Origin: Companilactobacillus pabuli
GTDB taxonomy: Bacteria > Bacillota > Bacilli > Lactobacillales > Lactobacillaceae
Length of the DNA: 64,000 bases
Direction of reading: 5' to 3'
NCBI RefSeq assembly: GCF_014058425.1
Contig: NZ_CP049366.1
Span: forward strand, 1,550,001-1,614,000
The first letter of the stretch is position 1. Every line of letters starts with the position of its first letter. Under the pieces are notes generated by a model, which was not told where the DNA came from, searched no databases, and was given only the letters and a program-made list of their open reading frames with translations. Shown piece after piece: positions 3,849 through 63,110 of the stretch. The translations under genes were made by a program, and so were the position numbers.

Positions 3849-4014
3849 GCCGTCGTCCGCAAAAGCCCTGTGATTGGCTGGAACGCTGCCGGCACTATTT
3901 TGAGCTTTTGCATGGCCCCAAAGACGCAAAATCTCAAAACTAGGCCTTTTTGTAAGTGCTAAAGCACTAACAAAAATCTGGCGGCTGAGCCATCACAGGG
4001 CTTTTGCTCCCGAC
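3849..4014 (+). repeat. Covarying multi-arm intergenic element, copy A
   Basis: One of five copies of an intergenic element that begins GCCGTCGTCCGC and ends near CCCGAC. Stem P1 pairs AAAAGCCCTGTGAT (3861-3874) with ATCACAGGGCTTTT (3992-4005), 14 of 14. Inside are conserved GGCTGGAAC, stem P2 (GCTGCC with GGCGGC), stem P3 (TTTTGAGCTTTTGCAT with a GACGCAAAATCTCAAAA arm) and hairpin P4 (TTTTTGTAAGTGCT with AGCACTAACAAAAA). It fills most of the 437-bp gap between zwf and yajC. The rest of that gap holds the zwf promoter side and the yajC terminator. The function is unknown. Confidence 0.8.
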
Positions 4015-39138: not shown

Positions 39139-39346
39139 TTTTAAGTCCCCTTTAAGTAAGCTTATTTTTAATTATAGAAGACTTTTTATCAAAATGGAAA
39201 ATGTTAGCGATTCCAAATTAAAAGTTTTTTCATTTTGATTTTAAGGACGAACTATTTTATTTTAATAGTAGTTTAATGTTCTAGTTTTAGTTTAATTTTA
39301 GATTTTTTGAAGAAAAATATACGGATTTATTTTTTTAGTTAAGGAT

Positions 39347-39511
39347 GCCGTCGTCCGCAAAAATCCTGTGGCTGGCTGGAACATAGCCGACGCAATTTTG
39401 AGCTTTTGCATAAACCAAGTGCGCAAAATCTCAAAACTCGGCCTTATTCTAAGCAACAAGTTGCTTAGAATAATTTGGCTATTGAGCCGCCACAGGATTT
39501 TCGCTACCGAC
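39347..39511 (+). repeat. Covarying multi-arm intergenic element, copy B
   Basis: Starts GCCGTCGTCCGC and ends CTACCGAC. P1: AAAATCCTGTGGC (39360-39372) pairs with GCCACAGGATTTT (39489-39501). P2: ATAGCC with GGCTAT. P3: TTTTGAGCTTTTGCAT with GCGCAAAATCTCAAAA. P4: TTATTCTAAGCAA with TTGCTTAGAATAA. P1 and P2 differ from copies A, C and E yet stay paired. Confidence 0.82.
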
Positions 39512-39601
39512 TAGATTTCAATTTCTATTTAGATAGAATTAGACACATACTCCCTAAAGAACAGCTCTATTTCTTTATTCTTTACATAAATAAAACAAAA
39601 A

Positions 39602-39649
39602 AGGACATCATTAGAATACGGCAATATACAGTAATTCTAACAATATCCT
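39602..39649 (-). repeat. Companion hairpin of the composite element (between copies B and C)
   Basis: AGGACATCATTAGAAT and ATTCTAACAATATCCT are near-complementary arms. On the minus strand the stem is followed by TTTTTTGTTT, so it looks like an intrinsic terminator reading toward copy B. The same arrangement is found beside copies D and E with different arm sequences. Confidence 0.7.
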
Positions 39650-39694
39650 CTATTAATTTTCTGAAGCAATTTATATAAAGATAGAAACCATAAT

Positions 39695-39857
39695 CTAGTC
39701 GAGAGCGAGGTCCTGGAAAATGCTCAGCCGCCAAATTGTCCTTAGCGATTTATTGCTTAGGACAAGACCAATCTTGGAGACAATTCCCGATTTTGGAATT
39801 GGCTTCAAGTTGTGTCGGCAGCGTTCCAGCGTTTTCCAGGACCGAACGGACGACGGC
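39695..39857 (-). repeat. Covarying multi-arm intergenic element, copy C
   Basis: Read on the minus strand it begins GCCGTCGTCCG and ends CTCGACTAG. P1 is GGTCCTGGAAAA with TTTTCCAGGACC, P2 GCTGCC with GGCGGC, P3 has CTTGAAGCCAATTCC with GGGAATTGTCTCCAAG in place of the usual sequence, and P4 TTGTCCTAAGC with GCTAAGGACAA type arms. It is in inverted orientation to copy B, 184 bp away, so the pair forms a unit with inverted GCCGTCGTCCG ends (39347-39857). Confidence 0.8.
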
Positions 39858-39884
39858 AGCGTAACATCCCTCAAAATAGTTAGT

Positions 39885-40853
39885 TTAGTCTTCACCAGAT
39901 TCTGAAGCGATGATATCCAAATCACCAGACAAGGTCCATTCTTTAATTGTTGCAGGAACAATCAAGTGTGTACCTTTCTTCAAGTCATAGTCTTTACCAT
40001 CAGCAGTGATCTTACCTTCACCGTTTAGAACTGAGATCAATGTGTACTTACCAATTTGGTGGTGCAATTGAACCGGTTCTTTGATTTCCCAGTGATAAAC
40101 TGAGAAGAATGGTGAAATTGGTGGTTGAACGAAGGTTGTAAACTTGTTCTTGCCAACTTCTTTTGATTGAATGTCTAGTTTTGGATCTTTGTGAGGTACT
40201 GTGATTGTGTCTTCTGATTGTTTGATGTGAAGATCACGTTTCTTGCCAGTAGTCTTGTCAACACGGTCATAGTCATACAAACGGTAAGTTGTATCACTAC
40301 TTTGTTGTGTTTCTAAGACCATGATACCTTTGTTCAAAGCGTGAACTGTACCACTTGGTACGTAGTAGAATTCACCTTTCTTAACAGGAACTTTTCTTAA
40401 TAAGTGATCCCAGTCGCCTGATTCGATCATTTGGTCAAGTTCTGCCTTGTTCTTAGCATTGTGACCGTAAATCAAGTATGAACCTGGTTCAGCATCAATG
40501 ATGTACCAGCATTCTGTTTTACCTAGTTCGTGTTCGTGCTTTTCAGCATATTCATTGTCAGGATGAACTTGAACTGATAGGCTAGCATTTGCATCCAAAA
40601 TTTTAGTTAGAAGTGGAAATACTTTGCCCTTAGGATTACCGAATAATTCCTTGTGGTCATTCCATAGATCAGCAAAGATTTGACCAGCAAATTCACCATT
40701 TACGACTTGTTCTTTACCATGTGGATGTCCAGAAATTGCCCAGCATTCACCAATTGTTCCATCAGGAATGTTGTAACCAAATTCTGTTTCTAATTTTCTT
40801 CCACCCCAGAGTTTCTCATGAAAGACGGGTTTTAAAAATAATGGTTCACTCAT
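39885..40853 (-). CDS. manA: Mannose-6-phosphate isomerase, class I
   Basis: A 322-residue type I phosphomannose isomerase that interconverts mannose 6-phosphate and fructose 6-phosphate. Zinc and active-site motifs include SVQVHPDNEYA, GKTECWYI and the later PSGTVHAL. The length is that of the short Gram-positive form. The start MSEPLFLKPVFHEKLWGGRKL is typical. It is 20 nt after the rex stop codon and may share its transcript. Confidence 0.95.
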   Translation of the reverse strand: MSEPLFLKPVFHEKLWGGRKLETEFGYNIPDGTIGECWAISGHPHGKEQVVNGEFAGQIFADLWNDHKELFGNPKGKVFPLLTKILDANASLSVQVHPDNEYAEKHEHELGKTECWYIIDAEPGSYLIYGHNAKNKAELDQMIESGDWDHLLRKVPVKKGEFYYVPSGTVHALNKGIMVLETQQSSDTTYRLYDYDRVDKTTGKKRDLHIKQSEDTITVPHKDPKLDIQSKEVGKNKFTTFVQPPISPFFSVYHWEIKEPVQLHHQIGKYTLISVLNGEGKITADGKDYDLKKGTHLIVPATIKEWTLSGDLDIIASESGED

Positions 40854-40873
40854 AAAAAAATTCCCCCAAAAAT

Positions 40874-41524
40874 TTATTCTATTTCTTCAGTCGCTGACTT
40901 GTCACGGTCTAAGAAGAAGATCAACGTTTGCAATTCGTTTGCCAAATCAACATAGTGCACACGAATACTGCTTGGCACGTTGATGATGACCGGTGTAAAG
41001 TTCAAGATTCCACGAACTCCAGCATCAGCTAACAAGTCGGCTGTCGTTTGCGCAGCGTTTGAAGAAACTGTCAAAATGCAGACATCGATCTGTTGTAAGT
41101 GAAGTTGTTCTTTTAGTTCACTAATATCGTAAACTGGAACACCACTCTTAACTGTACCGACAATTTCTTTATTAATATCAAAAGCTGCCGCAATTCGAAC
41201 ATTATTTGTCCGAGAAAAGTTATAATTTAGTAAGGCGTTACCTAAATTACCGACTCCAACTAAAGCGACGTTGGTACGTTTGTCTTGATTCAATAACTTC
41301 TTAAAGAACGTTACTAAATCGTTTACATCGTAGCCATAACCACGCTTGCCAAGTGCACCTAGATATGAGAAGTCACGTCTAATTGTAGCACTATCAATCT
41401 TAACCCCTTCTGATAATTCACCAGAGGAGATTTTTTTTGTACCCTCATCTTTGAGAAATTGGAAGTAACGATAATAAATTGGTAAACGCTTTATTGTTGC
41501 GTTTGGAACTGTTGTTTTTGTCAT
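40874..41524 (-). CDS. rex: Redox-sensing transcriptional repressor Rex
   Basis: A 216-residue Rex. An N-terminal winged helix (about 1-80, with IKRLPIYYRYFQFL and SATIRRDFSYLG) is followed by a Rossmann domain with the NAD(H) fingerprint GVGNLGNALL near 95 and a C-terminal swapped helix. It represses fermentation genes until NADH rises. Placement next to the ABC-F gene copies the Bacillus subtilis order (ydiF-moaC-rex). I did not find a convincing Rex box in the promoter. Confidence 0.95.
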   Translation of the reverse strand: MTKTTVPNATIKRLPIYYRYFQFLKDEGTKKISSGELSEGVKIDSATIRRDFSYLGALGKRGYGYDVNDLVTFFKKLLNQDKRTNVALVGVGNLGNALLNYNFSRTNNVRIAAAFDINKEIVGTVKSGVPVYDISELKEQLHLQQIDVCILTVSSNAAQTTADLLADAGVRGILNFTPVIINVPSSIRVHYVDLANELQTLIFFLDRDKSATEEIE

Positions 41525-41662
41525 AATTTACCACCATATGTGTGTCATTTCACTAACATTTATACTAAATAAAAATCACAAAAAACGCAACACGTTAAAC
41601 CTATAAAGACATAAATTATTAATTAATGATAAAATTGTGAATATGATAAAGGAGCAATCAAC

Positions 41663-43576
41663 TTGATTTTATTACAAGCACAAAACATTACCAAAAATTT
41701 TGGAACTAAAAAACTTTTTTCAAATGTCAGTTTCGAAATTCAAGACAATAGTCGCATCGGCCTCGTTGGTCGCAATGGTGTAGGAAAATCTACCCTATTA
41801 AAAATCATCTCTGATCAGGAGAGCTATAACAGTGGCAATATTGCACTCAAAAAAGATACCAATATTGGCTACTTAGCTCAGGATTCAGGATTAAATAACG
41901 ACAATAAAATTTTCGATGAATTGGAGCACGTCTTTGATTACCTCAAAGCTCAGGAAAAAAAGATGCGCGCTTTGGAAGAAAAATTGGCCAATCCGAATGT
42001 CGACAACTATGACGATATTTTGAAACAATACGATCAACTCCAAAATACCTTCCGTCAAGAAAATGGCTATAGCTATCAATCAGAAATCAGAAGTGTCCTC
42101 AAAGGATTCGGCTTTGATGAAGATGTTTGGCAAGATGAGATTTCAACCCTATCTGGTGGGGAAAGATCTCGTTTGGCAATGGCTAAAATGCTTTTGGAAC
42201 ACCACGATATTTTACTATTGGATGAACCAACTAACCATTTGGATATCAACACTGTCGAATGGTTAGAAAACTATCTAAAAGGCTATAAGGGCGCTTTAGT
42301 AATCGTTTCTCATGATCAGTACTTCTTGGACAAAGTAGTTAATGAAATTGTTGAAATCAATCAACACTCTTCAACCCACTACTCTGGTAACTATACTTTC
42401 TACTTGCAAGAAAAGAAGAAAAATCAAGAAGTTGCTTGGAAACATTACGAAGAACAACAAGCCGAGATTAAACGGACCGAAGAATATATCCAAAAAAATA
42501 TTGTCCGTGCTTCAACTACTAAGATGGCTCAAAGTCGTCGTAAAAAACTCGAACACATGGATGTTTTGGATCGTCCTGGTAGTGATCAAGGTTCAGTTCA
42601 CTTCTCTTTTGAGATTGACAAAGAAAGTGGTAATGACGTACTTTTGGTCAAAGATGCTGCTATTGGCTACGATGACCACATTATGTCTGAACCAATCAAT
42701 TTGGACGTCAAAAAAGGTGAACGTGTTGGTATCATCGGACCTAACGGTATCGGTAAGTCAACTTTCTTGAAATCAATTCTCGGAAAAATTCCAATGATCA
42801 AAGGAACATCCCAATTTGGTGCCAATGTTCAAGTCGGCTACTATGACCAGAATCTAAAAGGACTCGATCCTAAAAAAGACGTCTTGCACGAAATCTGGGA
42901 CCTATACCCAAGACTTGATGAACAAATTATCCGTAAGAAATTAGGAGCTTTCTTGTTCAGTGGCGATGACGTTCTAAAGCCTATTGCTGGTTTATCCGGT
43001 GGTGAAAAAGCCCGTTTGACTTTGACCAAATTATCTATGGAACACGACAACTTCCTAATCATGGATGAGCCCACTAACCACTTGGACATCGACAGTAAAG
43101 AAGTTCTTGAAGACGCCTTGAAGGAATTCCCAGGAACAGTTCTCTTCGTATCCCACGACCGTTACCTTTTGAACACATTAGCTAACCGTATCGTCGATAT
43201 TGGTGAACATGGTAGTAAGATTTATCTTGGTGATTACGACTACTATGTTGAAAAAACTTCCGACAAGCCAGTTGTTGAAGAAACTAAAGCAACTCCTTCA
43301 GTTAGTGAAAAGAAGATGGAGTATCAACAATCTAAAGAACAACAAAAACAAGAGCGTAAATTACGTCGTCAAGTTGAAGATTTAGAAAATCAAATTGCTG
43401 AATTAGAAGAAAAGAATGCGGCCATTCAAAAAGAAATGACTAAAGATGAAAACTTAACTTCTTACAGTAAGTTGGCCGATTTACAAAAAGAACTCGATGA
43501 GAATAAAGCTAAACAAGATGAAATCGAGGAAGAATGGACCAAAAAGTCAATTGAATTGGAAGATTTTAATAGTTAG
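41663..43576 (+). CDS. ABC-F ATPase (YdiF/Uup-type), TTG start
   Basis: A 637-residue protein with two ABC domains and no membrane segments. Walker A is GRNGVGKST and GPNGIGKST, signature motifs LSGGERSRLAMAK and LSGGEKARLTLTK, and Walker B LLLDEPTNHLDI and LIMDEPTNHLDI. The linker has the ABC-F region between the domains, and a long Lys/Glu coiled coil occupies about 545-635. ABC-F proteins act on the ribosomal E site. With no known resistance determinant motif I favour a housekeeping role. The start is a TTG at 41663 after AAAGGAG. Confidence 0.93.
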   Translation: MILLQAQNITKNFGTKKLFSNVSFEIQDNSRIGLVGRNGVGKSTLLKIISDQESYNSGNIALKKDTNIGYLAQDSGLNNDNKIFDELEHVFDYLKAQEKKMRALEEKLANPNVDNYDDILKQYDQLQNTFRQENGYSYQSEIRSVLKGFGFDEDVWQDEISTLSGGERSRLAMAKMLLEHHDILLLDEPTNHLDINTVEWLENYLKGYKGALVIVSHDQYFLDKVVNEIVEINQHSSTHYSGNYTFYLQEKKKNQEVAWKHYEEQQAEIKRTEEYIQKNIVRASTTKMAQSRRKKLEHMDVLDRPGSDQGSVHFSFEIDKESGNDVLLVKDAAIGYDDHIMSEPINLDVKKGERVGIIGPNGIGKSTFLKSILGKIPMIKGTSQFGANVQVGYYDQNLKGLDPKKDVLHEIWDLYPRLDEQIIRKKLGAFLFSGDDVLKPIAGLSGGEKARLTLTKLSMEHDNFLIMDEPTNHLDIDSKEVLEDALKEFPGTVLFVSHDRYLLNTLANRIVDIGEHGSKIYLGDYDYYVEKTSDKPVVEETKATPSVSEKKMEYQQSKEQQKQERKLRRQVEDLENQIAELEEKNAAIQKEMTKDENLTSYSKLADLQKELDENKAKQDEIEEEWTKKSIELEDFNS

Positions 43577-43590
43577 TATGTTTTTTCTTT

Positions 43591-43965
43591 CCGTCGTCCG
43601 TTCGGTACTGGCTAGATAGTGATTTCTATCTTTATATAAACGACTTCAGAAAATTAATAGAAGATATTACTAGAATTGCAGTACACTGCTGTAGTTCTAA
43701 TAGTATCTTCTTTTTTTATTTATGTAGTACTACAAAGAAATAGAATAGCTATTCAAAATAGTATGTGTCTGATTCTATCTAAATAGAACGTGAAATTTAG
43801 GCGGTAGCAAGAATCCTGTGGCGGCTCAATGGCTAAATTTTCCTTAGCGATTTATCGCTTAGGTAAAGACCGAGTTTTGAGATTTTGCGTCTTTGGGGCC
43901 ATGCAAAAGCTCAAAATCGTGTCAGCCATGTTCCAGCCAGCCACAGGATTCTTGCGGACGACGGC
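43591..43965 (-). repeat. Composite element with inverted GCCGTCGTCCG ends, right half intact (copy D)
   Basis: Copy D proper is 43800-43965. On the minus strand P1 is CAAGAATCCTGTGGC with GCCACAGGATTCTTG, P2 ATGGCT with AGCCAT, P3 TTTTGAGCTTTTGCAT with GACGCAAAATCTCAAAA, and P4 CCTAAGCGAT with ATCGCTAAGG. The left part (43612-43799) is homologous to the B-C spacer, for example TTAATTTTCTGAAG and TTTATATAAAGATAGAAA. At the left end only CCGTCGTCCGTTCGGTACTGG remains of a second arm, so it looks like a deletion derivative of the 39347-39857 layout. It fills the 475-bp gap between the ABC-F and DUF368 genes. Confidence 0.8.
43659..43717 (+). terminator. Companion hairpin of copy D, also a likely ABC-F terminator
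   Basis: AGAAGATATTACTAGAA and TTCTAATAGTATCTTCT are long, nearly complementary arms followed by T7 on the plus strand. Its arms differ from the corresponding hairpins at 39602 and 62844 but are self-complementary in each. It lies about 85 nt after the ABC-F stop codon. Confidence 0.75.
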
Positions 43966-44051
43966 ATGTTTCATCCAACGATTTCTATTGCCTATTACCT
44001 AGAAATTTGATAACTTTGATTAAACGAAATTAAAAAACGAGGTATCTAACA

Positions 44052-44897
44052 ATAAAACGAGATAATTTTTTAATTAGATTTTTCAAAGGTGTCATTATTG
44101 CTTTGGGATTCATCTTGCCGGGGGTTTCTGGTGGCGTGCTGGCTGCTATCATGGGAATTTATGAAAGATTGCTTAGTTTCATGGCTCACGTTAGACAAAA
44201 CTTCAAGCGAGACTTCTTATACTTCTTGCCAATTGGTATCGGTGGTATTGTCGGAATTGGTGTTCTTTCTAAACCCTTAGAATACTTACTAGCTCATTAT
44301 CAAATGATCGTACTTTGGGGATTTGCTGGAACTATTATCGGGACGTTACCTACTTTGATCAAGGAGTCTACTTCCCGAACTAACCGTGACAAAATCGATA
44401 TTATTTGGTTCTTTTCAATGTTTATTGGTGGTGGACTGTTCTTGTTCTTCATGAGTGAAATTTTTGGAACTATCCCGGCTAACTTCTTTGGCTTCATTAT
44501 CGCTGGGGCTTTGATTGCTCTGGGTGTTTTGGTACCAGGATTGAGCCCTTCAAACTTATTGATAATCTTAGGTTTATACACGCCAATGCTACAAGGTTTC
44601 AAGAGTTTTGACCCACTAGTCTTCATTCCGATTGCTATTGGTGGAATCATCTCTATTTTGACCTTCTCAAAAGCTATGGAAAGTCTGATCAAACATCATC
44701 ATTCCCGAGTTTATCATTTTATTCTCGGTATCGTTTTAGCTAGTACTGTTTTGATTTTAATCCCTAGTCCTTACTCGACAGAAAGTATTTCTTACGTTGG
44801 CGCTACAGGTCTGGATTGGATCTTAAGTATCGGATTCTTTATCTTAGGCTGTCTATTAGCCTTGTGGATGAGCAGTTTGGAAGAAAAATACAAGTAA
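44052..44897 (+). CDS. DUF368 membrane protein, apparent AUA start
   Basis: A DUF368 family protein of about eight helices with the signature GFILPGVSGGVLAAIMG near the N-terminus and a second copy-like GVLVPGLSPSN in the middle, an inverted-repeat transporter style. The family N-terminus KRDNFLIRFFKGVIIAL is present in frame before the first TTG (44103), but its initiator codon is ATA at 44052, with GAGG 9 nt upstream. No ATG, GTG or TTG occurs between the preceding stop and the TTG. With ATA the protein has 281 residues. Either an AUA start is used or the ATG has mutated or been misread. Function is unknown; polyprenyl-phosphate transport has been reported for DUF368 members. Confidence 0.8.
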   Translation: MKRDNFLIRFFKGVIIALGFILPGVSGGVLAAIMGIYERLLSFMAHVRQNFKRDFLYFLPIGIGGIVGIGVLSKPLEYLLAHYQMIVLWGFAGTIIGTLPTLIKESTSRTNRDKIDIIWFFSMFIGGGLFLFFMSEIFGTIPANFFGFIIAGALIALGVLVPGLSPSNLLIILGLYTPMLQGFKSFDPLVFIPIAIGGIISILTFSKAMESLIKHHHSRVYHFILGIVLASTVLILIPSPYSTESISYVGATGLDWILSIGFFILGCLLALWMSSLEEKYK

Positions 44898-47539: not shown

Positions 47540-47574
47540 AAAAAGACTAGATTCCACCTGATCTAGTCTTTTTT
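47540..47574. terminator. Terminator left of the insertion sequence (formerly CRISPR array terminator)
   Basis: AAAAAGACTAGAT and ATCTAGTCTTTTT pair around TCCACCTG. Removing the IS and one copy of its target duplication puts this hairpin directly behind the degenerate last CRISPR repeat on the minus strand, so it is likely the original array terminator. The remaining 47401-47535 is AT-rich with nothing recognised. Confidence 0.75.
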
Positions 47575-47578
47575 GATT
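47571..47578. repeat. Target-site duplication of the ISL3 element, left copy
   Basis: TTTTGATT precedes the left terminal repeat. The identical 8 bp follow the right end at 49034-49041. Confidence 0.9.
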
Positions 47579-49033
47579 GGTTCTAAACTTTCTGGTATTG
47601 ATGAACAATCAATACCAGTTTTTTTTATACTCTTTGAAATAAAAAAAGAACATCACTGTTCTCGTGTTAAGATTTAAGCGACCAAACCAAATCAAACAGG
47701 AGTGAACAATGGTGTCCCAAGACAATTCTATACTATGTGCGCTAGACATAAAAGACAATAATATAAAAAATGTTTCAGTAAAAGATTCCAAAATAAAAAA
47801 ACATGGTGTTATAAAACACATCAAAGTGGTGAATGCTGAACTATCTTATTCTTTACATAGGTGCCCTCAATGTGGAATGAATACACTAGTTAAAAATGGT
47901 AAAAGAACCACTAATGCAAGATTAGCTAGCTTTAATGGTATCGAGTACCACCTAGTACTAAGAAAGCAACGATTCCTGTGTAGGAACTGTGGAAGCACCT
48001 GCGGTGCCCACAGTGATCTATTGATAAAAAATCATACTATGACCAAACAGATTAAGAATAGAATCTTTTCCATGGCTAAAGAATCATTTACTCTGTCATC
48101 AATAGCTAAAGTCATCGGTATTTCAGCCAATACTGTAAGTAGGATTTTATATAGTAATACCAAAATTCCTAATAGATGTGCGCATTTGCCAGAAAATCTT
48201 TGTTTTGATGAGTTTAGATCCGTAAAAAATATTTTTACATTTATCGCCATCGATGCGGATACGCATCGGTTGGTCGAATTGATACATGACAGACTGTCTA
48301 AAACAATAACTGAACACTTTATAAATAATTACAGCTTATCGGAACGACAAGCCGTAAAAACCGTATCAATCGACTTAAATGCCAACTATCAATTAGTCGT
48401 TCATCGTATATTCCCCAATGCTCGCATTGTCGTAGATAGATTTCATATAGTTCAACTTTGTAGTAGAGCCTTGGATCAAGTACGTATCAATTCTTTAAAA
48501 AAATTGCCTGATAAAAAATCTCGTATATATAAAGCGATGAAATCTGATTGGCGTCTATATCATCTTCCAGAGGAAGATGTAGACGATACTCATATAAAAT
48601 TTATTGTCGGCATAAATGAATTTACGACTATTCAAAATGTCATCGATATAGCTACTGATGAAATACCAATTTTCAAGGAAGCTTATGGTACTTATCAGAG
48701 TATTCAAAGATCAATAAGATATCATGACATAAATCTACTTCAAGAAACTACTTCTGGATATAAAAGAAATGGGACTGCAATGGATACAGCCATTACAACG
48801 TTACGAAAAAACATAAATTATGTGAAAAATAGTTGCTTATTGCCATATTCCAATGGTCCTCTAGAGGGCACCATTGGAAAGATAAAGAAACTAAAAAGAA
48901 ATTCTTATGGCTTTAGAAATCTTGAACACTTTATTAAAAGAATAAGACTGATTTGTGCATAGAAAAAGAGCATCCTCGATGAGGATGCTCAATGAGCTCA
49001 AAATCATTCATCAATACGATTTGACAAAGAGCC
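47579..49033 (+). mobile_element. ISL3-family insertion sequence (1455 bp)
   Basis: The ends are imperfect inverted repeats: GGTTCTAAACTTTCTGGTAT...TGATGAA at left and GGCTCTTTGTCAAATCGTAT...TGATGAA read inward at right. Both are bounded by the 8-bp duplication TTTTGATT, as expected for ISL3 elements. It encodes one transposase and has a perfect GAGCATCCTC/GAGGATGCTC hairpin just after the stop codon. The perfect target duplication and intact transposase suggest a recent insertion. It landed at the distal end of the CRISPR array. Confidence 0.93.
47709..48962 (+). CDS. ISL3-family transposase
   Basis: A 417-residue transposase. An N-terminal zinc-finger region has CPQCGMNTLVKNG and CRNCGSTCG (about 53-100), then a helix-turn-helix segment (LSSIAKVIGISANTVSRIL, about 130-150). 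The DDE catalytic domain has DEFRSVK near 165, DLNANYQ and VVDRFHIVQL (about 240-262) and the terminal NGPLEGTIGKIKKLKRNSYGFRNL with the catalytic Glu. The start ATG (47709) has CAGGAGTG upstream. No frameshift is seen, so it is likely functional. Confidence 0.94.
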   Translation: MVSQDNSILCALDIKDNNIKNVSVKDSKIKKHGVIKHIKVVNAELSYSLHRCPQCGMNTLVKNGKRTTNARLASFNGIEYHLVLRKQRFLCRNCGSTCGAHSDLLIKNHTMTKQIKNRIFSMAKESFTLSSIAKVIGISANTVSRILYSNTKIPNRCAHLPENLCFDEFRSVKNIFTFIAIDADTHRLVELIHDRLSKTITEHFINNYSLSERQAVKTVSIDLNANYQLVVHRIFPNARIVVDRFHIVQLCSRALDQVRINSLKKLPDKKSRIYKAMKSDWRLYHLPEEDVDDTHIKFIVGINEFTTIQNVIDIATDEIPIFKEAYGTYQSIQRSIRYHDINLLQETTSGYKRNGTAMDTAITTLRKNINYVKNSCLLPYSNGPLEGTIGKIKKLKRNSYGFRNLEHFIKRIRLICA

Positions 49034-49041
49034 TTTTGATT
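49034..49041. repeat. Target-site duplication of the ISL3 element, right copy
   Basis: TTTTGATT, identical to 47571-47578. Its last three bases overlap the first bases of the degenerate terminal CRISPR repeat. Confidence 0.9.
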
Positions 49042-49756
49042 TTACTGTTTTTTAATTTTTTAAGGTACAAAAACGATCCTTTAAGGTACAAAAACTTATC
49101 TACCAACACTTCGCCAGTTTCCTTGGTTTTATTGTTTTTAAATTCTTTAAGGTACAAAAACACTGACTCAAAAATTTGAACGGGGTGCAAGGTTTTACAG
49201 TTTTTAAATTCTTTAAGGTACAAAAACGGTATGAGTCCGGTAAAATCAAAAACATGGGTTTTACTGTTTTTAAATTCTTTAAGGTACAAAAACGGTATGA
49301 GTCCGGTAAAATCAAAAACATGGGTTTTACTGTTTTTAAATTCTTTAAGGTACAAAAACCATACTTGATCGTATTCGGAATTGATACACGTTTTACTGTT
49401 TTTAAATTCTTTAAGGTACAAAAACAATTTTGCGTATCTTAAAACTAAACGTAGGGTTTTACTGTTTTTAAATTCTTTAAGGTACAAAAACTTTCAATGA
49501 GGCCATACTCACGCAATTTTTTGTTTTACTGTTTTTAAATTCTTTAAGGTACAAAAACTCGATACCTCTTAATTATTGGTGTGAAACTGTTTTACTGTTT
49601 TTAAATTCTTTAAGGTACAAAAACTGATTTCATAGCAATTCGCTTGTTTATTTAGTTTTACTGTTTTTAAATTCTTTAAGGTACAAAAACAATTAAATAT
49701 TTTACTATGATAGGATTGCCGTTTTACTGTTTTTAAATTCTTTAAGGTACAAAAAC
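49039..49756 (-). CRISPR. Type II-A CRISPR array, 10 full repeats plus two decayed distal ones
   Basis: The crRNA-sense (minus) repeat is 36 nt, beginning GTTTTTGTACCTTAAAG and ending AAACAGTAAAAC, like the S. thermophilus CRISPR1 repeat. Leader-proximal repeats are at 49721, 49655, 49589, 49523, 49456, 49390, 49324, 49258, 49192 (one mismatch) and 49126 (one mismatch), each 36 bp. Spacers are 30 bp, except one of 31 (49492-49522). Beyond 49126 is a tenth spacer (49096-49125), a half repeat (about 49075-49095) and, directly joined, a degenerate repeat 49039-49074. The spacers at 49228-49257 and 49294-49323 are identical. Translated, the array gives repetitive pseudo-proteins that are not genes. 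Confidence 0.98.
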
Positions 49757-49783
49757 CTCAAATTCAAAATTTTAATCCGTCAA
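49757..49783 (-). promoter_or_regulatory. CRISPR leader end with ATTTGAG anchoring sequence
   Basis: Only 27 bp separate the csn2 stop codon from the first repeat. On the minus strand they end GAATTTGAG directly before the repeat, containing ATTTGAG, the leader-anchoring sequence described for spacer integration in type II-A systems of streptococci. The rest of the leader and the array promoter must lie within the 3' part of csn2. Confidence 0.85.
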
Positions 49784-50806
49784 TTAATCTTCCAAAAATT
49801 TGGCTTCTGCATCTGTTAACGATTGAGTTCTTAAATCATATGACGTCTCATATCCTAAAATCTCATTCATTACCTTTAATAATACCAAATCTTGATTAGA
49901 TATAAAAACTTTTTCAGTACTTCCAATCAAAGAAAAAATTCTCTTTAAAGAATGTGCAATTTCATCTTTTGATAACTGCAAATCATTTGGATAATATAAC
50001 TGAATCGACTTTATTAGTTCGTCAATTGGTAACAACTGATGAAATTCATTGGTAGATATTACAACATTATCCATTTCACTAGCATCAAGCGGTACATTAT
50101 TCAAATCATTTCCCAAATAAATTAACTTTAGATCGTATTCTCTTACTAACTTTTTAACTTCAATTAAAAGTGACTCAATGTCTTTAGAACTAATAAAACT
50201 ATCTAGATTATAAAGTATCAACCAAACTGGCAGCCCCGTATTCTCCAATCGAAACTTCAAAAAGTTCAAAAACTCATCTAATAATAATTCTGTATCCATG
50301 AATTCCAATGGATAATCTAATCCGTTTTCTTTATAACCCATAAATAACTTGGCTTTAAGTAAATCCGCATAAGAAAAATTCAAAAATTCACTTTGAAGAT
50401 TATTAGAATAATTATCTAGATGTTGTTGTAACAAAATTTCTATCTTCAATAACTCATCATTTAGTTGCTCAATTGAACGATCAATCTCTAAATCATTTTC
50501 AAAACTATTCAAGAAATCAAAGAGTAGCGTGTCCTTCTTATAAAGCATTTGTTGATAAATACTTTCTCGATTATGAATAAAAAACGGCAAAGTATTCTTT
50601 ATTGAAACAGCTTCATCATCACAAGTAATCTCAATTTTATTCTCTCCATAAACATTAGTTGTCAGTTTTGGATTTTTGTTGAAATAATAATACAAACTAC
50701 GAAAAACTTGCCAAATTTTTTGACGATTTTCTCCAGTAATATAAATTTCATTTTCAAAATTCAATTCCAGGAACTTCTGATTTTCTAATTCAATATTTAA
50801 AATCAT
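49784..50806 (-). CDS. csn2: Csn2, long form (type II-A adaptation protein)
   Basis: A 340-residue Csn2-like protein at the expected last position of cas9-cas1-cas2-csn2. It is much longer than the 220-residue Csn2 of S. pyogenes and corresponds to the long Csn2 of S. thermophilus CRISPR1-type loci. It has a divergent ATPase-like N-terminus (FENEIYITGENRQKIWQVFRSL) and the segment GLPVWLILYNLDSFIS resembling a Walker B strand. Csn2 rings bind DNA ends during spacer capture. The start overlaps the cas2 stop codon by 4 nt (ATGA). Confidence 0.87.
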   Translation of the reverse strand: MILNIELENQKFLELNFENEIYITGENRQKIWQVFRSLYYYFNKNPKLTTNVYGENKIEITCDDEAVSIKNTLPFFIHNRESIYQQMLYKKDTLLFDFLNSFENDLEIDRSIEQLNDELLKIEILLQQHLDNYSNNLQSEFLNFSYADLLKAKLFMGYKENGLDYPLEFMDTELLLDEFLNFLKFRLENTGLPVWLILYNLDSFISSKDIESLLIEVKKLVREYDLKLIYLGNDLNNVPLDASEMDNVVISTNEFHQLLPIDELIKSIQLYYPNDLQLSKDEIAHSLKRIFSLIGSTEKVFISNQDLVLLKVMNEILGYETSYDLRTQSLTDAEAKFLED

Positions 50807-51126
50807 ATGATCACCAACTCTTTACTGCCGACTATGGTTTCCTGATTACTTCTAGAACCGACTAAGATCTGCATATCATTGAATTGCTTCTCACTGACCG
50901 AAACTAATCTCACTTCTCCATGTACGGGTAGAAAGCTTTTAATGGCCGTTTCATATCTTTTACCAGCAGCACGATTTTGAACCGCACGATAATAGACAGA
51001 ATATTGCAACATTGTGAAACCATTTCTCAATAGTTCTTTACGGAAAATACGATATTGACGACGTTCTTGCGGAGTATCAACAGGTAAATCAAACATACAT
51101 AACATTCTCATATTTTGATATTTCAA
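50803..51126 (-). CDS. cas2: CRISPR-associated endoribonuclease/adaptor Cas2
   Basis: A 107-residue ferredoxin-fold protein with MRMLCMFDLPVDTPQERRQYRIFRKEL and FTMLQYSVYYRAV, standard Cas2 motifs including the conserved Asp of FDLP. With Cas1 it forms the integrase. The likely start is TTG at 51126, overlapping the cas1 stop (TTGA) and preceded by GGAGAGG. An internal ATG at 51111 lacks a site. Confidence 0.95.
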   Translation of the reverse strand: MKYQNMRMLCMFDLPVDTPQERRQYRIFRKELLRNGFTMLQYSVYYRAVQNRAAGKRYETAIKSFLPVHGEVRLVSVSEKQFNDMQILVGSRSNQETIVGSKELVII

Positions 51127-52031
51127 CTTTCCTCTCCCACAAAATTATTTAGTCCAATCTTTATAACTAAACTAGGATCAGTTTCGTCAATAGCACTGAT
51201 GAAACTTTGAACGTACTCCTGCATCGAATTATTAATCGTCATCTTCTTATTATTGATTCTGATTTTTTGATTCATAAATTCAATAATTTTCAACCTCGAT
51301 TCGTAACTCAAGTATTCTTTATCATCTAGCACGTTTTCATTGACCCAATAATCCATCAACGGTCGATAAGGTTCCATTAAGTCATCAACTAAGTTAAAAC
51401 TATTAAACTCATTTCGATGAAAGATACCAAGCATCGTGACCAAACCATTGCCAACCACAATTCGAGCCATACAAGAACGGAGTATTGCATAACCAAAATT
51501 CATCGCTGCATTAATCAAACAATCGTCATTTCTAGTAAAGCTTTTGCCATATAATGAATCAAAATAAACTTTAGCTACATGTCCTTCACGATTAGTCGTA
51601 TCACCAACTTGCAAATCATCAATCAAATCCTCCATCAATTCTAAACGTTCGTTTTCGACACCACTGTATTGGGCAAAAGCTAATTGATTATGCATCTTTT
51701 GTCCTATAACTTCTTGCCAAATGATTCCTTTTTGTTCATCACTCCAAGAAGATTGCTTAATCACTCTTTTAGAGTAGTGATGGTACTGTCCATAAGGCAA
51801 ATAGATTCCTACTGGCAAATACTTATCATCACAAATTACCAAGCCAACATTACTCTGACTCATCCGTGACATTAATTTGGTCGTCAACATGGTTCGATTA
51901 CCTTCCAAAACTACCATCGTGATATCGGATAGCGGAATAAAGACTTTATTATCTCGCTTCAAAACTTCTAAATTATCTAAACGAAGTCTTAGAACATCCC
52001 CTTCCTTGATATGAACAATTCTCCAAGCCAT
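51123..52031 (-). CDS. cas1: CRISPR-associated integrase Cas1 (type II)
   Basis: A 302-residue type II Cas1 beginning MAWRIVHIKEGD. I chose the ATG at 52031 because GGAGG lies 8 nt upstream, whereas the ATG at 52037 is only about 2 nt from it. Active-site regions include GVENERLELMEDLID and the conserved NAAMNFGYAILRS and LGIFHRNEFNSFNLVDDLMEPYRP with catalytic Glu/His/Asp. It lies directly downstream of the tracrRNA gene. Confidence 0.96.
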   Translation of the reverse strand: MAWRIVHIKEGDVLRLRLDNLEVLKRDNKVFIPLSDITMVVLEGNRTMLTTKLMSRMSQSNVGLVICDDKYLPVGIYLPYGQYHHYSKRVIKQSSWSDEQKGIIWQEVIGQKMHNQLAFAQYSGVENERLELMEDLIDDLQVGDTTNREGHVAKVYFDSLYGKSFTRNDDCLINAAMNFGYAILRSCMARIVVGNGLVTMLGIFHRNEFNSFNLVDDLMEPYRPLMDYWVNENVLDDKEYLSYESRLKIIEFMNQKIRINNKKMTINNSMQEYVQSFISAIDETDPSLVIKIGLNNFVGEES

Positions 52032-52054
52032 AGACATTCCTCCAAATTTTTTAT

Positions 52055-52187
52055 AAAAAAAACCACCTATTACTTAAAATAGGTGGTAAATTCGGAATAA
52101 ATCCTTATTTTTGTAGATCTTAAAGAATTTAAAAACAGTAAAACTTTAACCGTATGTGCGCACATACGCATAAGGCGTCCCTTACAA
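52055..52187 (-). ncRNA. tracrRNA between cas9 and cas1 (S. thermophilus CRISPR1-like)
   Basis: On the minus strand an anti-repeat (52144-52108) is complementary to almost all of the CRISPR repeat, with a bulge at AGATCTA. It is followed by ACAAAAATAAGGATTTATTCC, matching the pattern ACAAAGATAAGGCTTCATGCC of the S. thermophilus CRISPR1 tracrRNA, then a terminal hairpin ACCACCTAT/ATAGGTGGT with a U8 tail (about 52062-52055). The 5' end is uncertain. A promoter at 52221-52194 would start near 52187, giving a 5' extension with a perfect 18-bp palindrome, CGTATGTGCGCACATACG (52151-52168). Confidence 0.92.
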
Positions 52188-52193
52188 GTAAAA

Positions 52194-52221
52194 ATAATAC
52201 CATACCATCATGATTAATCAA
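52194..52221 (-). promoter_or_regulatory. Predicted tracrRNA promoter overlapping the cas9 stop codon
   Basis: On the minus strand TTGATT (52221-52216), 16 nt, then TATTAT (52199-52194). The -35 hexamer includes the last codons and stop of cas9. Transcription would begin around 52187. Confidence 0.55.
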
Positions 52222-55200
52222 GAATTTTTTGTGGATAATTTGACTCTTTTTCAAGATAATATGTATCACCTAAAATACTTGTATTTACCTTCCAAATCTT
52301 ACAATTTTTTGGTATTAATCTTTTTATTAATCTTCCCCTTCCATAGATTGGTAAGACTTTATCATTATCTATTTGAGATATCGGTTTTAATTCGGCGTAC
52401 TTTTTATTAGAGAAATTCCTTGACCAGAATAACAATTCCACTGATTCATTTGTTTCCATATCTTGAACCTTAATTCTATCTTTTCGATACAGACTGAACA
52501 TAAATTCAGAATTTTCTGATACGCCTTCAATATTCTTGATTTTTAAATACTTATCTTTCTTAATCCCGTATCCCTCATTCTTATTGAATTTTAGATCAGA
52601 GTATTTGATTCCCATAATTTCATATTCACCAGTTTCATGATTCAAATAAACATCTGTTCTCCAAGGCTTTAATGACTGTAAAACAACATGTTTATTATTA
52701 GCATTTTTCGGTGTGATATCAATATGTGAGCCTAATTTCTTGTCAAGATACTTAAGTTGTTTAATAGCTGGCCCAGTTTTCTTTGAATACTTCCTAACCA
52801 TCCCATTATCTCTTCGGTACAGCTCAAACGGACTAATATCTACAGCCTTAATTTTGCCATTTGTCTGTACTTTTTCAATTTTGTCCGGATAGTCAATTAC
52901 AATCTTCTCTAATTCAGAAAAAGTCCTAGGATCATACTTGTACAACAAAAATTTAGTTTTATCTTTTTTGTAGACTTTTTTGAAATTTTCATATCCATCG
53001 ACGCTATAAATATCTTTCACTTTTGCCACAACATACTCGGCGTCTTTTTTATCCTTAGACAATTTACCAATTCGTGTGGAATAGATTGTTGCATCACTAA
53101 CTTTTCGATTCATCTTCTTATCAACTTGATGTGAGAATTTAATTCTATCATCAGCATTCATGATTTCGGAAATGAATCCACTATATGGTTCCTCATACAT
53201 CACTTTATCGAAATTCTTATCGTCTAAAATCTCGCCAGTTTCGATATCAATTGAGGTTTCATTGATCTTAGTTGGGAAAATCGTACTTCCCTTTTTCCAC
53301 ATTCTCAAGAATGGTGTAGCAGCAATAATTGAAGCATCAATAGCATGATGATGGAACGTATCACGAGTTTTATCAATATGCCAATGTTTACGCATATTAG
53401 ATGTGAACTTACCCCGAATAACTGTCACTTTAGTATCGTCAGATTTTTCATGGAAAAATTCTTGCAAACTATTAAGTACCACTCGAGAAGAATATCTTGT
53501 ATCGACTAAGTTACGTGATAAGAATCTTTTTCTAGTTTCAATGTTACTAACATTTTCTTCAAAAAGATAATTATCCCGTTTGGCTTTACTAAAGTTCTTA
53601 TTCTTACTAACAATGGCCTTAAATTTAGCATAACCTTGGCCATGACCTTCATTCAAAAATTCATATGGTGTTTTTTGTCCTTTAACTTGATTCATTGAGG
53701 CAAAACACAATGTCTTATTATTGATACCATCATCAAAAGAAATAGATTGTGGAATAATGTGATCAATTTCAAATTTATCGGGATTACTGATTAAATCATT
53801 TGCATTAATTTCTTCACCATTATAGGGGTCAATGCCTTGTTGTTGATGCCACAGACGAATTCCCATCTGAAGTTTACGATTTTTACTAAGAGCAATCTTT
53901 ACATTCTTTTTGCTGCCAACCGCTTTAACAAAAGCATTGAATGCTGCATCTTTAATCTTTTTATTTTTCTTTTGAAAATCTGCAATTTGCTTTCGTTCTT
54001 CATCCAAATTCTTATCACGTGGCATTTCAATAACTATGTATTCAATATGGCCGTACTTTTTCAATACTGCATTAACAATCTTCAAAGCCTCACGTACAGA
54101 TTTAGAAGCAACTGGATTAAAGATATCATTGGCAATTTCTTTATAAGGCAAATACTTATTACCTTCAAAACGCTTAGTATCCTTTTTAATTAAACCCATT
54201 TCCGTCAACAAAGTCATTTGTTCGACCGGACGCTCAATCATTGTTGGTATTAATTTATTCATAGTCTTCAATGAGAAACGATGCCACTTGTTATTAGTCT
54301 TGATATCGAAACTATCTTTATTATCAATAATCAACTGAACCAAGTCATCATTCAGGAAATCAAAATCAGGAACTAATCGTTTGTTAATTTGTTTTCTGAT
54401 TTCTCCATTCTCAGTATTCAACGTCAAAATAAAACTCAAACGATCAATAAAATCTATCGGCCAATCAGTGATATCAATACCAACTTTAAGAAAATCTTTA
54501 TGAGCTTTACGATATATAGGCATCGAACTTATTTCAGGCTTATCTTTTTCGTTAAGACGAAATCCTTTAATATCATCCTTTTGACAACCTGTAACCTTTT
54601 TAATAACGTTCAACATGTTTACTACTGTCGTATTATTTTTAATTTCCGCAATTATCTTTTCTTTATCAATTTGAGTTAATTTGCCATCTTCATAACTCAA
54701 AATTCTCAAATTATTCAAATCATTCAAAACGTTGAATAATTGTGCAGTATAAGATGCCGCCGAAGCTCTTAACTCATCTGGATAAATTTTATCGTGACCA
54801 ATTAATTCCTCAAATAAATTATCCAAGGTACGACCGTCGGTTTTATAAATCCCATAGTCAGTTCGAGACTTCTCATTACCAGGTCCAACAAAGTAATCTC
54901 TTTTTCTTGTCAAAATCTGACAGTACTCTTTTACAAACTCACCAGTCAAAATCTCTGGATAAAATTGTTGCTGAGTGGCAATGATTTGTCTTGCTTCTTT
55001 TTCATAAGCATTCGTTGGAAAAACATTCAGCAATACTTTTTGGTCATCAATATCGTCTCCAACAATCACTTTACCCCTAACCTTGCCGTAATCATTCAAA
55101 CGTTGTAATTGAATCTGGGCTGGAGTCTTTTCAATTAATTCTTGACTATTGATTTTTAAACTTGATGAATAATCAGTTCCATCTTCATTTGCATCAGCAT

Positions 55201-55591
55201 CTTTTAAAGCGTAGCTGATTCCTCGACGTTTAATAATTTGATACAAACTATCGGCTAATTCTTCCTTGTTTAATTGTTTAGTCAACCCTTTAACACGCAA
55301 TTCATAAGGATTCCAATTATTATTAAATGCTGTATGGAAGTTATCCCTATCAAAATTGTCTAATAAACCATATTCTTGGAATAATTTACTTACGTCTTTT
55401 CGACGTTGTTTATTCCGATTCAATAATCTTCTGGAACCGCGCATATCACGACGATCTTGGTTTCCAGCGGCAACGGTCGCATTAAACAACCTAGCTCCTA
55501 ATTCAATCACCTTTCCTTTATCAATATCTAATACACTAAATCCAACTGAGGCAACACCAATATCTAATCCTAAACTGATCCTGTCTGTCAT
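52214..55591 (-). CDS. cas9: Cas9 RNA-guided endonuclease, compact type II-A
   Basis: A 1125-residue Cas9, close in size to the S. thermophilus CRISPR1 enzyme (about 1120). RuvC-I SLGLDIGVASVGFSVLD has the catalytic Asp at 10, an Arg-rich bridge helix RRLLNRNKQRRKDV follows at about 55-70, RuvC-II EYIVIEMPRD near 520, HNH DHIIPQSISFDDGINNK near 608 and RuvC-III TFHHHAIDASIIAAT near 747. The C-terminal 250 residues hold the PAM-interacting part. All catalytic residues are present and no frameshift is seen. The start ATG has AAGGGTG upstream. The PAM cannot be read from the window. Confidence 0.97.
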   Translation of the reverse strand: MTDRISLGLDIGVASVGFSVLDIDKGKVIELGARLFNATVAAGNQDRRDMRGSRRLLNRNKQRRKDVSKLFQEYGLLDNFDRDNFHTAFNNNWNPYELRVKGLTKQLNKEELADSLYQIIKRRGISYALKDADANEDGTDYSSSLKINSQELIEKTPAQIQLQRLNDYGKVRGKVIVGDDIDDQKVLLNVFPTNAYEKEARQIIATQQQFYPEILTGEFVKEYCQILTRKRDYFVGPGNEKSRTDYGIYKTDGRTLDNLFEELIGHDKIYPDELRASAASYTAQLFNVLNDLNNLRILSYEDGKLTQIDKEKIIAEIKNNTTVVNMLNVIKKVTGCQKDDIKGFRLNEKDKPEISSMPIYRKAHKDFLKVGIDITDWPIDFIDRLSFILTLNTENGEIRKQINKRLVPDFDFLNDDLVQLIIDNKDSFDIKTNNKWHRFSLKTMNKLIPTMIERPVEQMTLLTEMGLIKKDTKRFEGNKYLPYKEIANDIFNPVASKSVREALKIVNAVLKKYGHIEYIVIEMPRDKNLDEERKQIADFQKKNKKIKDAAFNAFVKAVGSKKNVKIALSKNRKLQMGIRLWHQQQGIDPYNGEEINANDLISNPDKFEIDHIIPQSISFDDGINNKTLCFASMNQVKGQKTPYEFLNEGHGQGYAKFKAIVSKNKNFSKAKRDNYLFEENVSNIETRKRFLSRNLVDTRYSSRVVLNSLQEFFHEKSDDTKVTVIRGKFTSNMRKHWHIDKTRDTFHHHAIDASIIAATPFLRMWKKGSTIFPTKINETSIDIETGEILDDKNFDKVMYEEPYSGFISEIMNADDRIKFSHQVDKKMNRKVSDATIYSTRIGKLSKDKKDAEYVVAKVKDIYSVDGYENFKKVYKKDKTKFLLYKYDPRTFSELEKIVIDYPDKIEKVQTNGKIKAVDISPFELYRRDNGMVRKYSKKTGPAIKQLKYLDKKLGSHIDITPKNANNKHVVLQSLKPWRTDVYLNHETGEYEIMGIKYSDLKFNKNEGYGIKKDKYLKIKNIEGVSENSEFMFSLYRKDRIKVQDMETNESVELLFWSRNFSNKKYAELKPISQIDNDKVLPIYGRGRLIKRLIPKNCKIWKVNTSILGDTYYLEKESNYPQKILD

Positions 55592-58599: not shown

Positions 58600-58728
58600 G
58601 GAGCTGCCACCAGATATAGGCTTAAGACGTATATAAAGTGGCGAATGCGGAAACAAGATCGCGAGATAACTCTTTGTCCGGTGTTCACATTCCGTTCCAC
58701 CAGCACTTAACGCCTTGAATCCTACTCC
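58600..58728 (-). promoter_or_regulatory. Tetrahydrofolate (THF) riboswitch controlling folT
   Basis: On the minus strand the RNA begins GGAGTAGGATTCAAGGCGTT followed by AAGTGCTGG, matching the class consensus (GGAGAGTA...GCGTTAAGTG), and closes with GGTGGCAGCTCC, which pairs with the initial GGAG. Between them are the expected stem arms. Just downstream, CTAGGAG is the folT ribosome site. The closing strand CTCC could alternatively pair with this GGAG, suggesting translational control. Confidence 0.9.
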
Positions 58729-58792
58729 AAATTTTTTAGTACTCGTCTATCATAGCACTATTTTTTCTGTAAACAAGTATTTTGTTTGCATT

Positions 58793-62942: not shown

Positions 62943-63110
62943 CTAGTCCGGAATAGCAAAGAAAATTGGCTCAGTAGTGAAATTATTCTTAGCAACTTGT
63001 TGCTTAGAATAAGGCCGAGTTTTGAGATTTTGCGCACTTGATTTATGCAAAAGTTCAAAATCGTGCCCACTACGTTCCAGCCAAATTTTCTTTGCTATGG
63101 AGGACGGCAG
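62943..63110 (-). repeat. Covarying multi-arm intergenic element, copy E
   Basis: On the minus strand it begins GCCGTCCTCC and ends CCGGACTAG. P1 is ATAGCAAAGAAAATTTGGCT with AGCCAATTTTCTTTGCTAT (19 pairs with one bulge), entirely different from the other copies. P2 is GTAGTG with CACTAC, P3 the shared TTTTGAACTTTTGCAT with GCGCAAAATCTCAAAA, P4 TTATTCTAAGCAA with TTGCTAAGAATAA. It fills most of the gap between yaaL and tmk. Confidence 0.82.

What the first reader, a model, noticed from the sequence alone, without database searches (positions are those of the whole stretch)
39347..39511. Five-copy structured element with compensatory stem changes: candidate novel RNA or ssDNA family
Seen directly: copies at 3849-4014 (+), 39347-39511 (+), 39695-39857 (-), 43800-43965 (-) and 62943-63110 (-) share conserved blocks (GCCGTCGTCC, GGCTGGAAC, ACTCGGCC, TGAGCC) and four stems in the same order. 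P1 differs completely (AAAAGCCCTGTGAT, AAAATCCTGTGGC, GGTCCTGGAAAA, CAAGAATCCTGTGGC, ATAGCAAAGAAAATT) but the 3' strand changes in step every time. P2 does the same: GCTGCC/GGCGGC, ATAGCC/GGCTAT, ATGGCT/AGCCAT, GTAGTG/CACTAC. P4 varies likewise. Such covariation means the fold is selected or re-made, not the sequence. I recognise no named family. Inference: a structured ncRNA, or a mobile element moved as folded single-stranded DNA.
Basis: partly seen in the sequence, partly recalled or inferred. Interest (0 to 1): 0.88.

Follow-up and report, generated by a model that had tools for sequence, protein, structure and literature searches.

The report
Jumping DNA inserted in terminator hairpins
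The five folded repeats are end-pieces of a small gene-less jumping element spread between genes in one genus of food bacteria; several copies sit inside hairpins that end transcription, and the folds are kept by matching DNA letters rather than in the way a folded RNA would keep them.

Summary
In detail: the five copies share one fold and both arms of the stems change together. This genome has 109 copies. The model matches 33 of 36 genomes of the genus (Companilactobacillus) and 0 of 24 outside it. Rfam has no match.

It does not look like a free-standing RNA gene. All 31 neighbouring pairs face each other across a spacer that usually holds a two-way terminator hairpin. In 13 of 78 clusters both terminal inverted repeats are recognisable; 7 of these 13 have a target duplication of 6-10 bp, four of them 7 bp. 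Related genomes show empty sites. In 7 of 13 rebuilt sites the unit sits in the loop of a strong hairpin. So it is a MITE-like mobile element that carries its own terminator.

The covariation is real but not RNA-like: G-U and A-C appositions are equally common (132:123, one fixed G-U pair left out), whereas RNase P RNA of the genus gives 190:6. The stems behave as DNA inverted repeats. Template switching, gene conversion or selection for folded DNA could cause this; I could not separate them. The transposase is not identified.

The parts
39335..39866 (.). C+B mobile unit (about 532 bp): module B (+), central spacer with two-way terminator hairpin, module C (-)
   Evidence: Nine separate places in G003, G012 and G023 match from window 39329-39345 to 39858-39866; spacer without it in G015 and G022
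39347..39511 (+). Module B (copy c2 of the finding)
39512..39697 (.). Central spacer with long hairpin and T-tracts
39698..39857 (-). Module C (copy c3)
43591..43971 (.). Decayed C+B unit (approximate edges); the C partner is reduced to a remnant of about 20 bp at the left end
   Evidence: G012 and G023 carry a C module at the same site
43800..43965 (-). Module B of that unit (copy c4)
3849..4014 (+). Single module B (copy c1), with a terminator-like hairpin on its 3' side, towards the yajC 3' end
62946..63108 (-). Single module A (copy c5) between the DUF2508 gene and tmk, with a terminator-like hairpin on its 3' side
   Evidence: the same insertion, partly deleted or broken off, in G003, G012 and G023

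Best explanation
The five copies are end modules of a MITE-like mobile element found so far only in Companilactobacillus. A full unit reads: terminal inverted repeat, 160-bp imperfect-palindrome module, central intrinsic terminator that can work in both directions, second module in reverse, terminal inverted repeat. It overlaps no sizeable gene. SHOWN by sequence: the units move as blocks, duplicate their target (most often 7 bp), and in 7 of 13 delimited cases lie in the loop of a strong hairpin, mostly with T-runs like a host terminator. INFERRED: a transposase supplied in trans moves them; insertion splits the host terminator, but a transcript coming from either side still meets the unit's own central terminator, so insertion costs the host little. 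INFERRED: the two arms of each stem change together because they are copied from one another as DNA (template switching at hairpins, gene conversion between copies), possibly helped by selection for a folded DNA form; they are not kept as a G-U-tolerant RNA fold.
For: 109 copies in 78 clusters; 31 of 31 neighbouring pairs convergent, 30 of 33 in fetched loci of relatives. 0 of 78 clusters overlap an ORF of 90 aa or more by over 60 nt. A hairpin of -12 kcal/mol or better with T-tract lies within 250 nt on the 3' side in 85 of 109, against 41 of 109 on the 5' side. 13 of 78 clusters keep both TIRs; TSD score 5.5 or more in 7 of 13, against 0.64% of 156 mismatched flank pairs. Empty sites for units 633004-633518 and 1127725-1128250, flanks overlapping by 7 and 9 bases. 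Insertion point in the loop of a hairpin of -12 or better in 7 of 13, against 4.5% of 1355 control points. GU:AC 132:123, RNase P 190:6 at variable pairs. Close copies (85% or more): single changes WC-GU 40 and WC-AC 69 (A3), 32 and 34 (A4), RNase P 42 and 2; transversions among double WC changes 30 of 91, 36 of 107, RNase P 4 of 35.
Against: No transposase with these ends was found, and the resident ISL3 element shares only the first bases of the TIR. TSDs were seen only in units with A or A and D modules (five pairs, two single-A units), not in C+B units such as the window pair. 6 of 13 rebuilt sites are not in a strong hairpin loop. One G-U apposition is nearly invariant (106 of 109); with it GU:AC is 218:130 (A3) and 222:123 (A4). 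A fresh RNAalifold of A3 gives 401:109, of which three mostly-G-U pairs hold 287 and the rest is 114:106. Family-consensus counts are few and lean slightly to GU. At 70-85% identity the RNase P contrast is weaker (122:28). Internal-loop motifs (GGAAC, TGAG) are conserved, as in a recognised structure.
Confidence: 0.8

Rival explanations
1. A family of functional structured RNAs: each module is transcribed, folds and acts as RNA (3' UTR stability element, regulator or sRNA), the copies having been spread by the mobile unit.
For: Deep covariation with conserved loop motifs; one nearly fixed G-U pair; modules point towards a terminator.
Against: Elsewhere G-U and A-C equally frequent, against 190:6 for RNase P; the antisense strand folds better in 76 of 95 copies; 26 of 46 scored single modules follow a gene on the same strand and 20 do not; copies are deleted or absent at orthologous sites.
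Confidence: 0.12
2. A sub-reading of the best explanation: selection for a folded DNA form. The transposition machinery recognises extruded hairpin modules (ssDNA or cruciform), so both arms must match whatever their sequence.
For: Almost only Watson-Crick pairing and conserved internal-loop motifs with freer stem sequence, modules at fixed places inside the TIRs, target preference for hairpin loops.
Against: Target duplications suit a double-strand DDE transposase, which needs no hairpin (recalled); a unit with one recognised module also has a clean TSD (655289-655692).
Confidence: 0.35
3. A sub-reading of the best explanation: pure mutation. The arms match only because replication template switching keeps perfecting palindromes and gene conversion swaps interiors; the fold has no function.
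For: About one third of double changes between close copies are transversions that cannot pass through G-U; P1 or P4 swapped in both arms at orthologous sites (c4, c2; read); copies that lost the interior but kept both P1 arms; the mechanism is described for RNA genes in PMC8794818 (abstract and start of introduction seen).
Against: Does not by itself explain the conserved internal-loop motifs and module order across the genus.
Confidence: 0.35
4. Two independent insertions of one module, one on each side of a palindromic host terminator, rather than one composite unit.
For: Convergent pairs flank a terminator; G003 keeps the middle hairpin almost without modules at the window pair.
Against: The middle is conserved between unlinked pairs of one type, matches run over the whole composite at other places, and empty sites lack modules and middle together.
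Confidence: 0.04

Closest known systems
MITEs of bacteria (review PMC10969869; passages seen)
   Same: Short, no gene, multi-copy, intergenic, TIRs, direct repeats (7-9 bp in QMITE2), transcripts predicted to fold
   Different: Two 160-bp covarying palindromic modules inside the TIRs, a central two-way terminator, insertion points often in hairpin loops
Pneumococcal BOX, RUP and SPRITE repeats (PMC3049150; passages seen)
   Same: 125, 110 and 30 copies in one genome, MITE features, folding; SPRITE resembles a terminator; over-represented between convergent genes
   Different: No sequence link was tested; SPRITE is one terminator-like hairpin, here terminator and folded modules are parts of one unit
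REPIN / REP doublets (recalled)
   Same: Paired inverted palindromic repeats, intergenic, many copies
   Different: REP units are much shorter; the RAYT transposase was not looked for
Group IIC introns (recalled)
   Same: Use intrinsic terminators as targets
   Different: Retroelements with a ribozyme; no Rfam intron match in the window; TSDs present
ISL3-family insertion sequences
   Same: GG(C/T)TCT start of the ends, as in the resident ISL3 copy, which also lies beside a terminator-like hairpin (read)
   Different: The ends differ beyond the first bases; the ISL3 copy in the window shows an 8-bp duplication, the unit most often 7

Membership tests
MITE | Short, no gene of its own, many intergenic copies | tested here: met
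   Delimited units of 281-528 bp; 109 copies; 0 of 78 clusters overlap an ORF of 90 aa or more by over 60 nt
MITE | Terminal inverted repeats | tested here: met
   GGTTCTTTCTTAAGTTAGGTT at both ends in 13 of 78 clusters with up to 6 substitutions; in the pattern scan the reversed-pattern control is 0 in all 10 genomes
MITE | Target site duplication and empty sites | tested here: met
   7 of 13 units against 0.64% of 156 controls; empty sites in G003, G012 and G023. No clear TSD for C+B units
MITE | Ends shared with an autonomous parent element | tested here: inconclusive
   No two listed inward-facing TIR hits 1-3 kb apart in 10 genomes, several of them drafts; ISL3 copies share only the first bases
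Structured ncRNA family (Rfam-type) | Match to a described family | tested here: not met
   Nothing at or above gathering at the copies or in nine related loci
Structured ncRNA family (Rfam-type) | Pair changes that tolerate G-U on the RNA strand | tested here: not met
   132 GU to 123 AC without the fixed pair, 222:123 with it; RNase P 190:6; refold of A3 401:109 owing to three mostly-G-U pairs, rest 114:106
Structured ncRNA family (Rfam-type) | A transcript | not testable with these tools
   No RNA data
IS200/IS605-like ssDNA element | No target duplication (recalled) | tested here: not met
   Duplications in 7 of 13 delimited units, two confirmed by empty sites
REPIN / RAYT | RAYT transposase in the genome | not tested
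   Not searched
Group II intron | Ribozyme core | tested here: not met
   No Rfam group II intron match at gathering score in the window

The most novel reading that the evidence does not exclude
A class of mobile elements whose ends are self-perfecting palindromes: the stem sequence is free to drift because DNA replication or the transposition machinery restores arm identity through the folded DNA, and the element homes to hairpin loops of transcription terminators and carries a spare terminator. Such elements would score as overwhelming 'RNA covariation' in standard tests without being RNA genes.
Probability: 0.4. Interest if true: 0.8.

Novelty: new variant of a known kind. Interest (0 to 1): 0.62.

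Why it matters
It offers a natural case where massive covariation, normally taken as proof of a functional RNA, seems to be kept at the DNA level; the G-U to A-C ratio exposes this quickly and could screen other candidate RNA families. It also shows a gene-less mobile element that often sits in hairpin loops of intrinsic terminators while bringing a new terminator, which would help to explain how about 100 copies are tolerated in a 2.5 Mb genome.

Tried and rejected
Rfam with a lax threshold on window 39200-44100 gave only weak, unrelated matches. Plasmid and phage collections had no match to c2. ISL3 as direct parent: ends agree only in the first bases. A first measure of hairpin loops (pairs enclosing the insertion point) was too loose: 11 of 13 against 40.5% of control points at 8 pairs or more; it was replaced by hairpin energy. 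TSDs for C+B units: no consistent one. DNA-parameter folds of cut-down modules are not used. An RNAalifold of A3 gave 401 GU to 109 AC, against my reading; one search shows that three mostly-G-U pairs hold 287 of the 401 and the rest is 114:106. Promoters were not tested. Paper searches, of which I saw the listings. None of the listed titles names this element; (Companilactobacillus with 'intergenic repeat') returned no paper. The library lacks most subscription papers.

Rows dropped: of 111 matches, two weak ones beside counted copies (1769041 and 2182062) were left out, giving 109; short decayed matches were kept. Alignment A3 holds 105 copies of this genome and 10 of relatives; those 10 are also in A4. 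The 132:123 count leaves out one fixed G-U pair. Three pairs that my labels call C+A look D-like by eye.

Full report
CHECK. The five copies are present at the stated places, and a covariance model built from them (R1) recovers them in the window. Copy c2 folds at -70.5 kcal/mol, z -8.7; its reverse strand at -80.8, z -8.8. No Rfam family reaches gathering score there.

NUMBER AND RANGE. In the whole genome (2,497,143 bases, window at C1:1550001-1614000) R1 gives 111 matches at E 0.1 or better (150 of 637 candidates scored); I kept 109, in 78 clusters. A pattern (CTGGAAC, gap of 85-115, TGAGC) gives 48 + 48 places against 1 + 0 for the reversed control. Of 60 genomes, 33 of the 36 in the genus (own included) match and 0 of 24 outside (stricter filters, weak matches may be missed). 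A scan of named contigs with one exact 23-base pattern gives Companilactobacillus futsaii, crustorum, musae, formosensis, kimchiensis and kimchii, and one MAG called Lactobacillus sp.; the genus name of the window's own genome is inferred from this.

ANATOMY. P1 falls into subfamilies; A is the commonest among the 47 singles (30, plus 3 A variants). 31 clusters are pairs, all convergent: by simple labels 14 C+B, 12 D+A, 3 C+A and 2 A+E. In fetched loci of relatives 30 of 33 neighbours within 1 kb are convergent. A hairpin of -12 kcal/mol or better with T-tract lies on the 3' side within 250 nt in 85 of 109 copies (both strands in 61), against 41 of 109 on the 5' side; at -7 the figures are 101 and 79. 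In pairs the 3' side is the shared spacer. No cluster overlaps an ORF of 90 aa or more by over 60 nt (0 of 78); neighbouring ORFs are tandem 44, convergent 23, divergent 10 of 77 scored.

MOBILITY. 13 of 78 clusters keep both terminal repeats GGTTCTTTCTTAAGTTAGGTT with at most 6 substitutions. Their flanks hold a direct repeat scoring 5.5 or more in 7 of 13 (lengths 10, 7, 7, 7, 7, 6, 6), against 0.64% of 156 comparisons between flanks of different units. Unit 633004-633518 (515 bp) is missing in G003, G012 and G023, whose flanks overlap by 7 bases within an unbroken inverted repeat; G015 lacks it too, with another short sequence there. Unit 1127725-1128250 is missing in G023 with a 9-base overlap; G003, G012 and G015 also lack it, with different spacers. 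The same blocks recur almost end to end at other places of the relatives. For the window pair, nine places in G003, G012 and G023 match from window 39329-39345 to 39858-39866, so the unit is about 39335-39866. G023 has the pair at the same site; G015 and G022 have only a short inverted repeat there, and G003 a remnant. No clear duplication surrounds the C+B units, so their boundaries rest on the recurring matches.

TARGET. Joining the flanks of the 13 units with one duplication removed, the insertion point lies in the loop of a hairpin of -12 kcal/mol or better in 7 of 13, against 4.5% of 1355 control points in the same flanks. Six of the seven are followed by visible T-runs, as in intrinsic terminators. 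The empty site of the window pair in G015 likewise reads as an inverted repeat between A- and T-runs (by eye). The other 6 of 13 do not show this.

WHY NOT AN RNA. On A3 46 of 62 pairs change on both sides, score 0.533 against 0.174 shuffled; on A4 60 of 62, 0.592 against 0.159. Yet on A4 G-U cells number 132 and A-C 123 when one fixed G-U pair is left out, 222:123 with it; 38 sequences have more G-U and 38 more A-C. On A3 the figures with the fixed pair are 218:130, and that pair alone gives 106. An A-C on one strand is a G-U on the other, so neither strand is favoured. A fresh RNAalifold of A3 gives 401:109, but three mostly-G-U pairs hold 287 of the 401 and the rest is 114:106; A4 refolded gives 86:91. 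RNase P RNA of 30 genus genomes gives 190:6 at variable pairs (280:6 over all). Between copies at least 85% alike, single changes are WC-GU 40 and WC-AC 69 (A3), 32 and 34 (A4), RNase P 42 and 2; at 70-85% they are 133 and 135, 73 and 91, RNase P 122 and 28. Double Watson-Crick changes that are transversions are 30 of 91, 36 of 107 and RNase P 4 of 35. Dead copies decaying neutrally add to the symmetry. Family consensus sequences hold few non-Watson-Crick pairs: in clusters of three or more at 90% identity on A3, 455 WC, 17 GU (at most 8 of them the fixed pair), 6 AC and 6 other. That small sample leans to GU, so the RNA rival is lowered, not excluded.

HOW ARMS CHANGE TOGETHER. Orthologous copies show whole swaps: at c4, G012 and G023 carry another P1 in both arms; at c2, G023 has the same P1 but another P4 in both arms (read). 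A few copies lost the interior but kept both P1 arms (for example 113721 and 108597). Template switching that creates and repairs stems is described in PMC8794818 (abstract and start of introduction). I could not separate it from gene conversion between copies or from selection for folded DNA.

CONCLUSION. A MITE-like mobile unit, found only in this genus so far, with palindromic end modules and a central two-way terminator, often placed in hairpin loops. Shown: copies, pairing rule, terminal repeats, duplications, empty sites, loop preference in 7 of 13, DNA-like covariation. Inferred: transposase in trans, spare-terminator benefit, template switching. Closest in kind are bacterial MITEs (PMC10969869, passages) and the pneumococcal BOX, RUP and SPRITE repeats (PMC3049150, passages).

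Noticed in passing
yaaL-tmk spacer of several relatives, e.g. L139, L144, L151-L153, L155: A second, different folded repeat (GAGAG... GAGCATTRCCTAGRATA ... CTCGTTT) sits at the same place. Its 17-base core (up to 2 mismatches) has 106 hits in G009, 53 in G016 and 0 in this genome; 11 of 13 genomes have at least one, many hits lie about 121 bp apart. No Rfam match at gathering in the four such loci tested.
   Followed up: partly
window 49035-55591: CRISPR-Cas locus: 11 repeats (49035-49759), Csn2 (St type), Cas1 and a 1125-aa Cas9; looks like type II-A.
   Followed up: no
window about 47570-49040: ISL3-family insertion sequence (transposase 47709-48962) beside the CRISPR array, with TTTTGATT on both sides and a terminator-like inverted repeat at its left edge (by eye); 8 chromosomal hits with 418-aa frames.
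   Followed up: partly
window 58637-58731, minus strand: THF riboswitch, 69.8 bits.
   Followed up: no
L120 1294-1656; L127 1500-2012; L123 141-1360: The three same-direction neighbours among 33 in relatives (54, 148 and 870 bp apart), exceptions to the convergent rule.
   Followed up: no
G000:C1 55927, 65520, 68503, 379584, 1966806 (variant at 630121): Copies of types B and C share a replaced P2 5' arm (GGAGAATGT...) that by eye no longer matches the 3' arm, as if a patch had spread between types.
   Followed up: no
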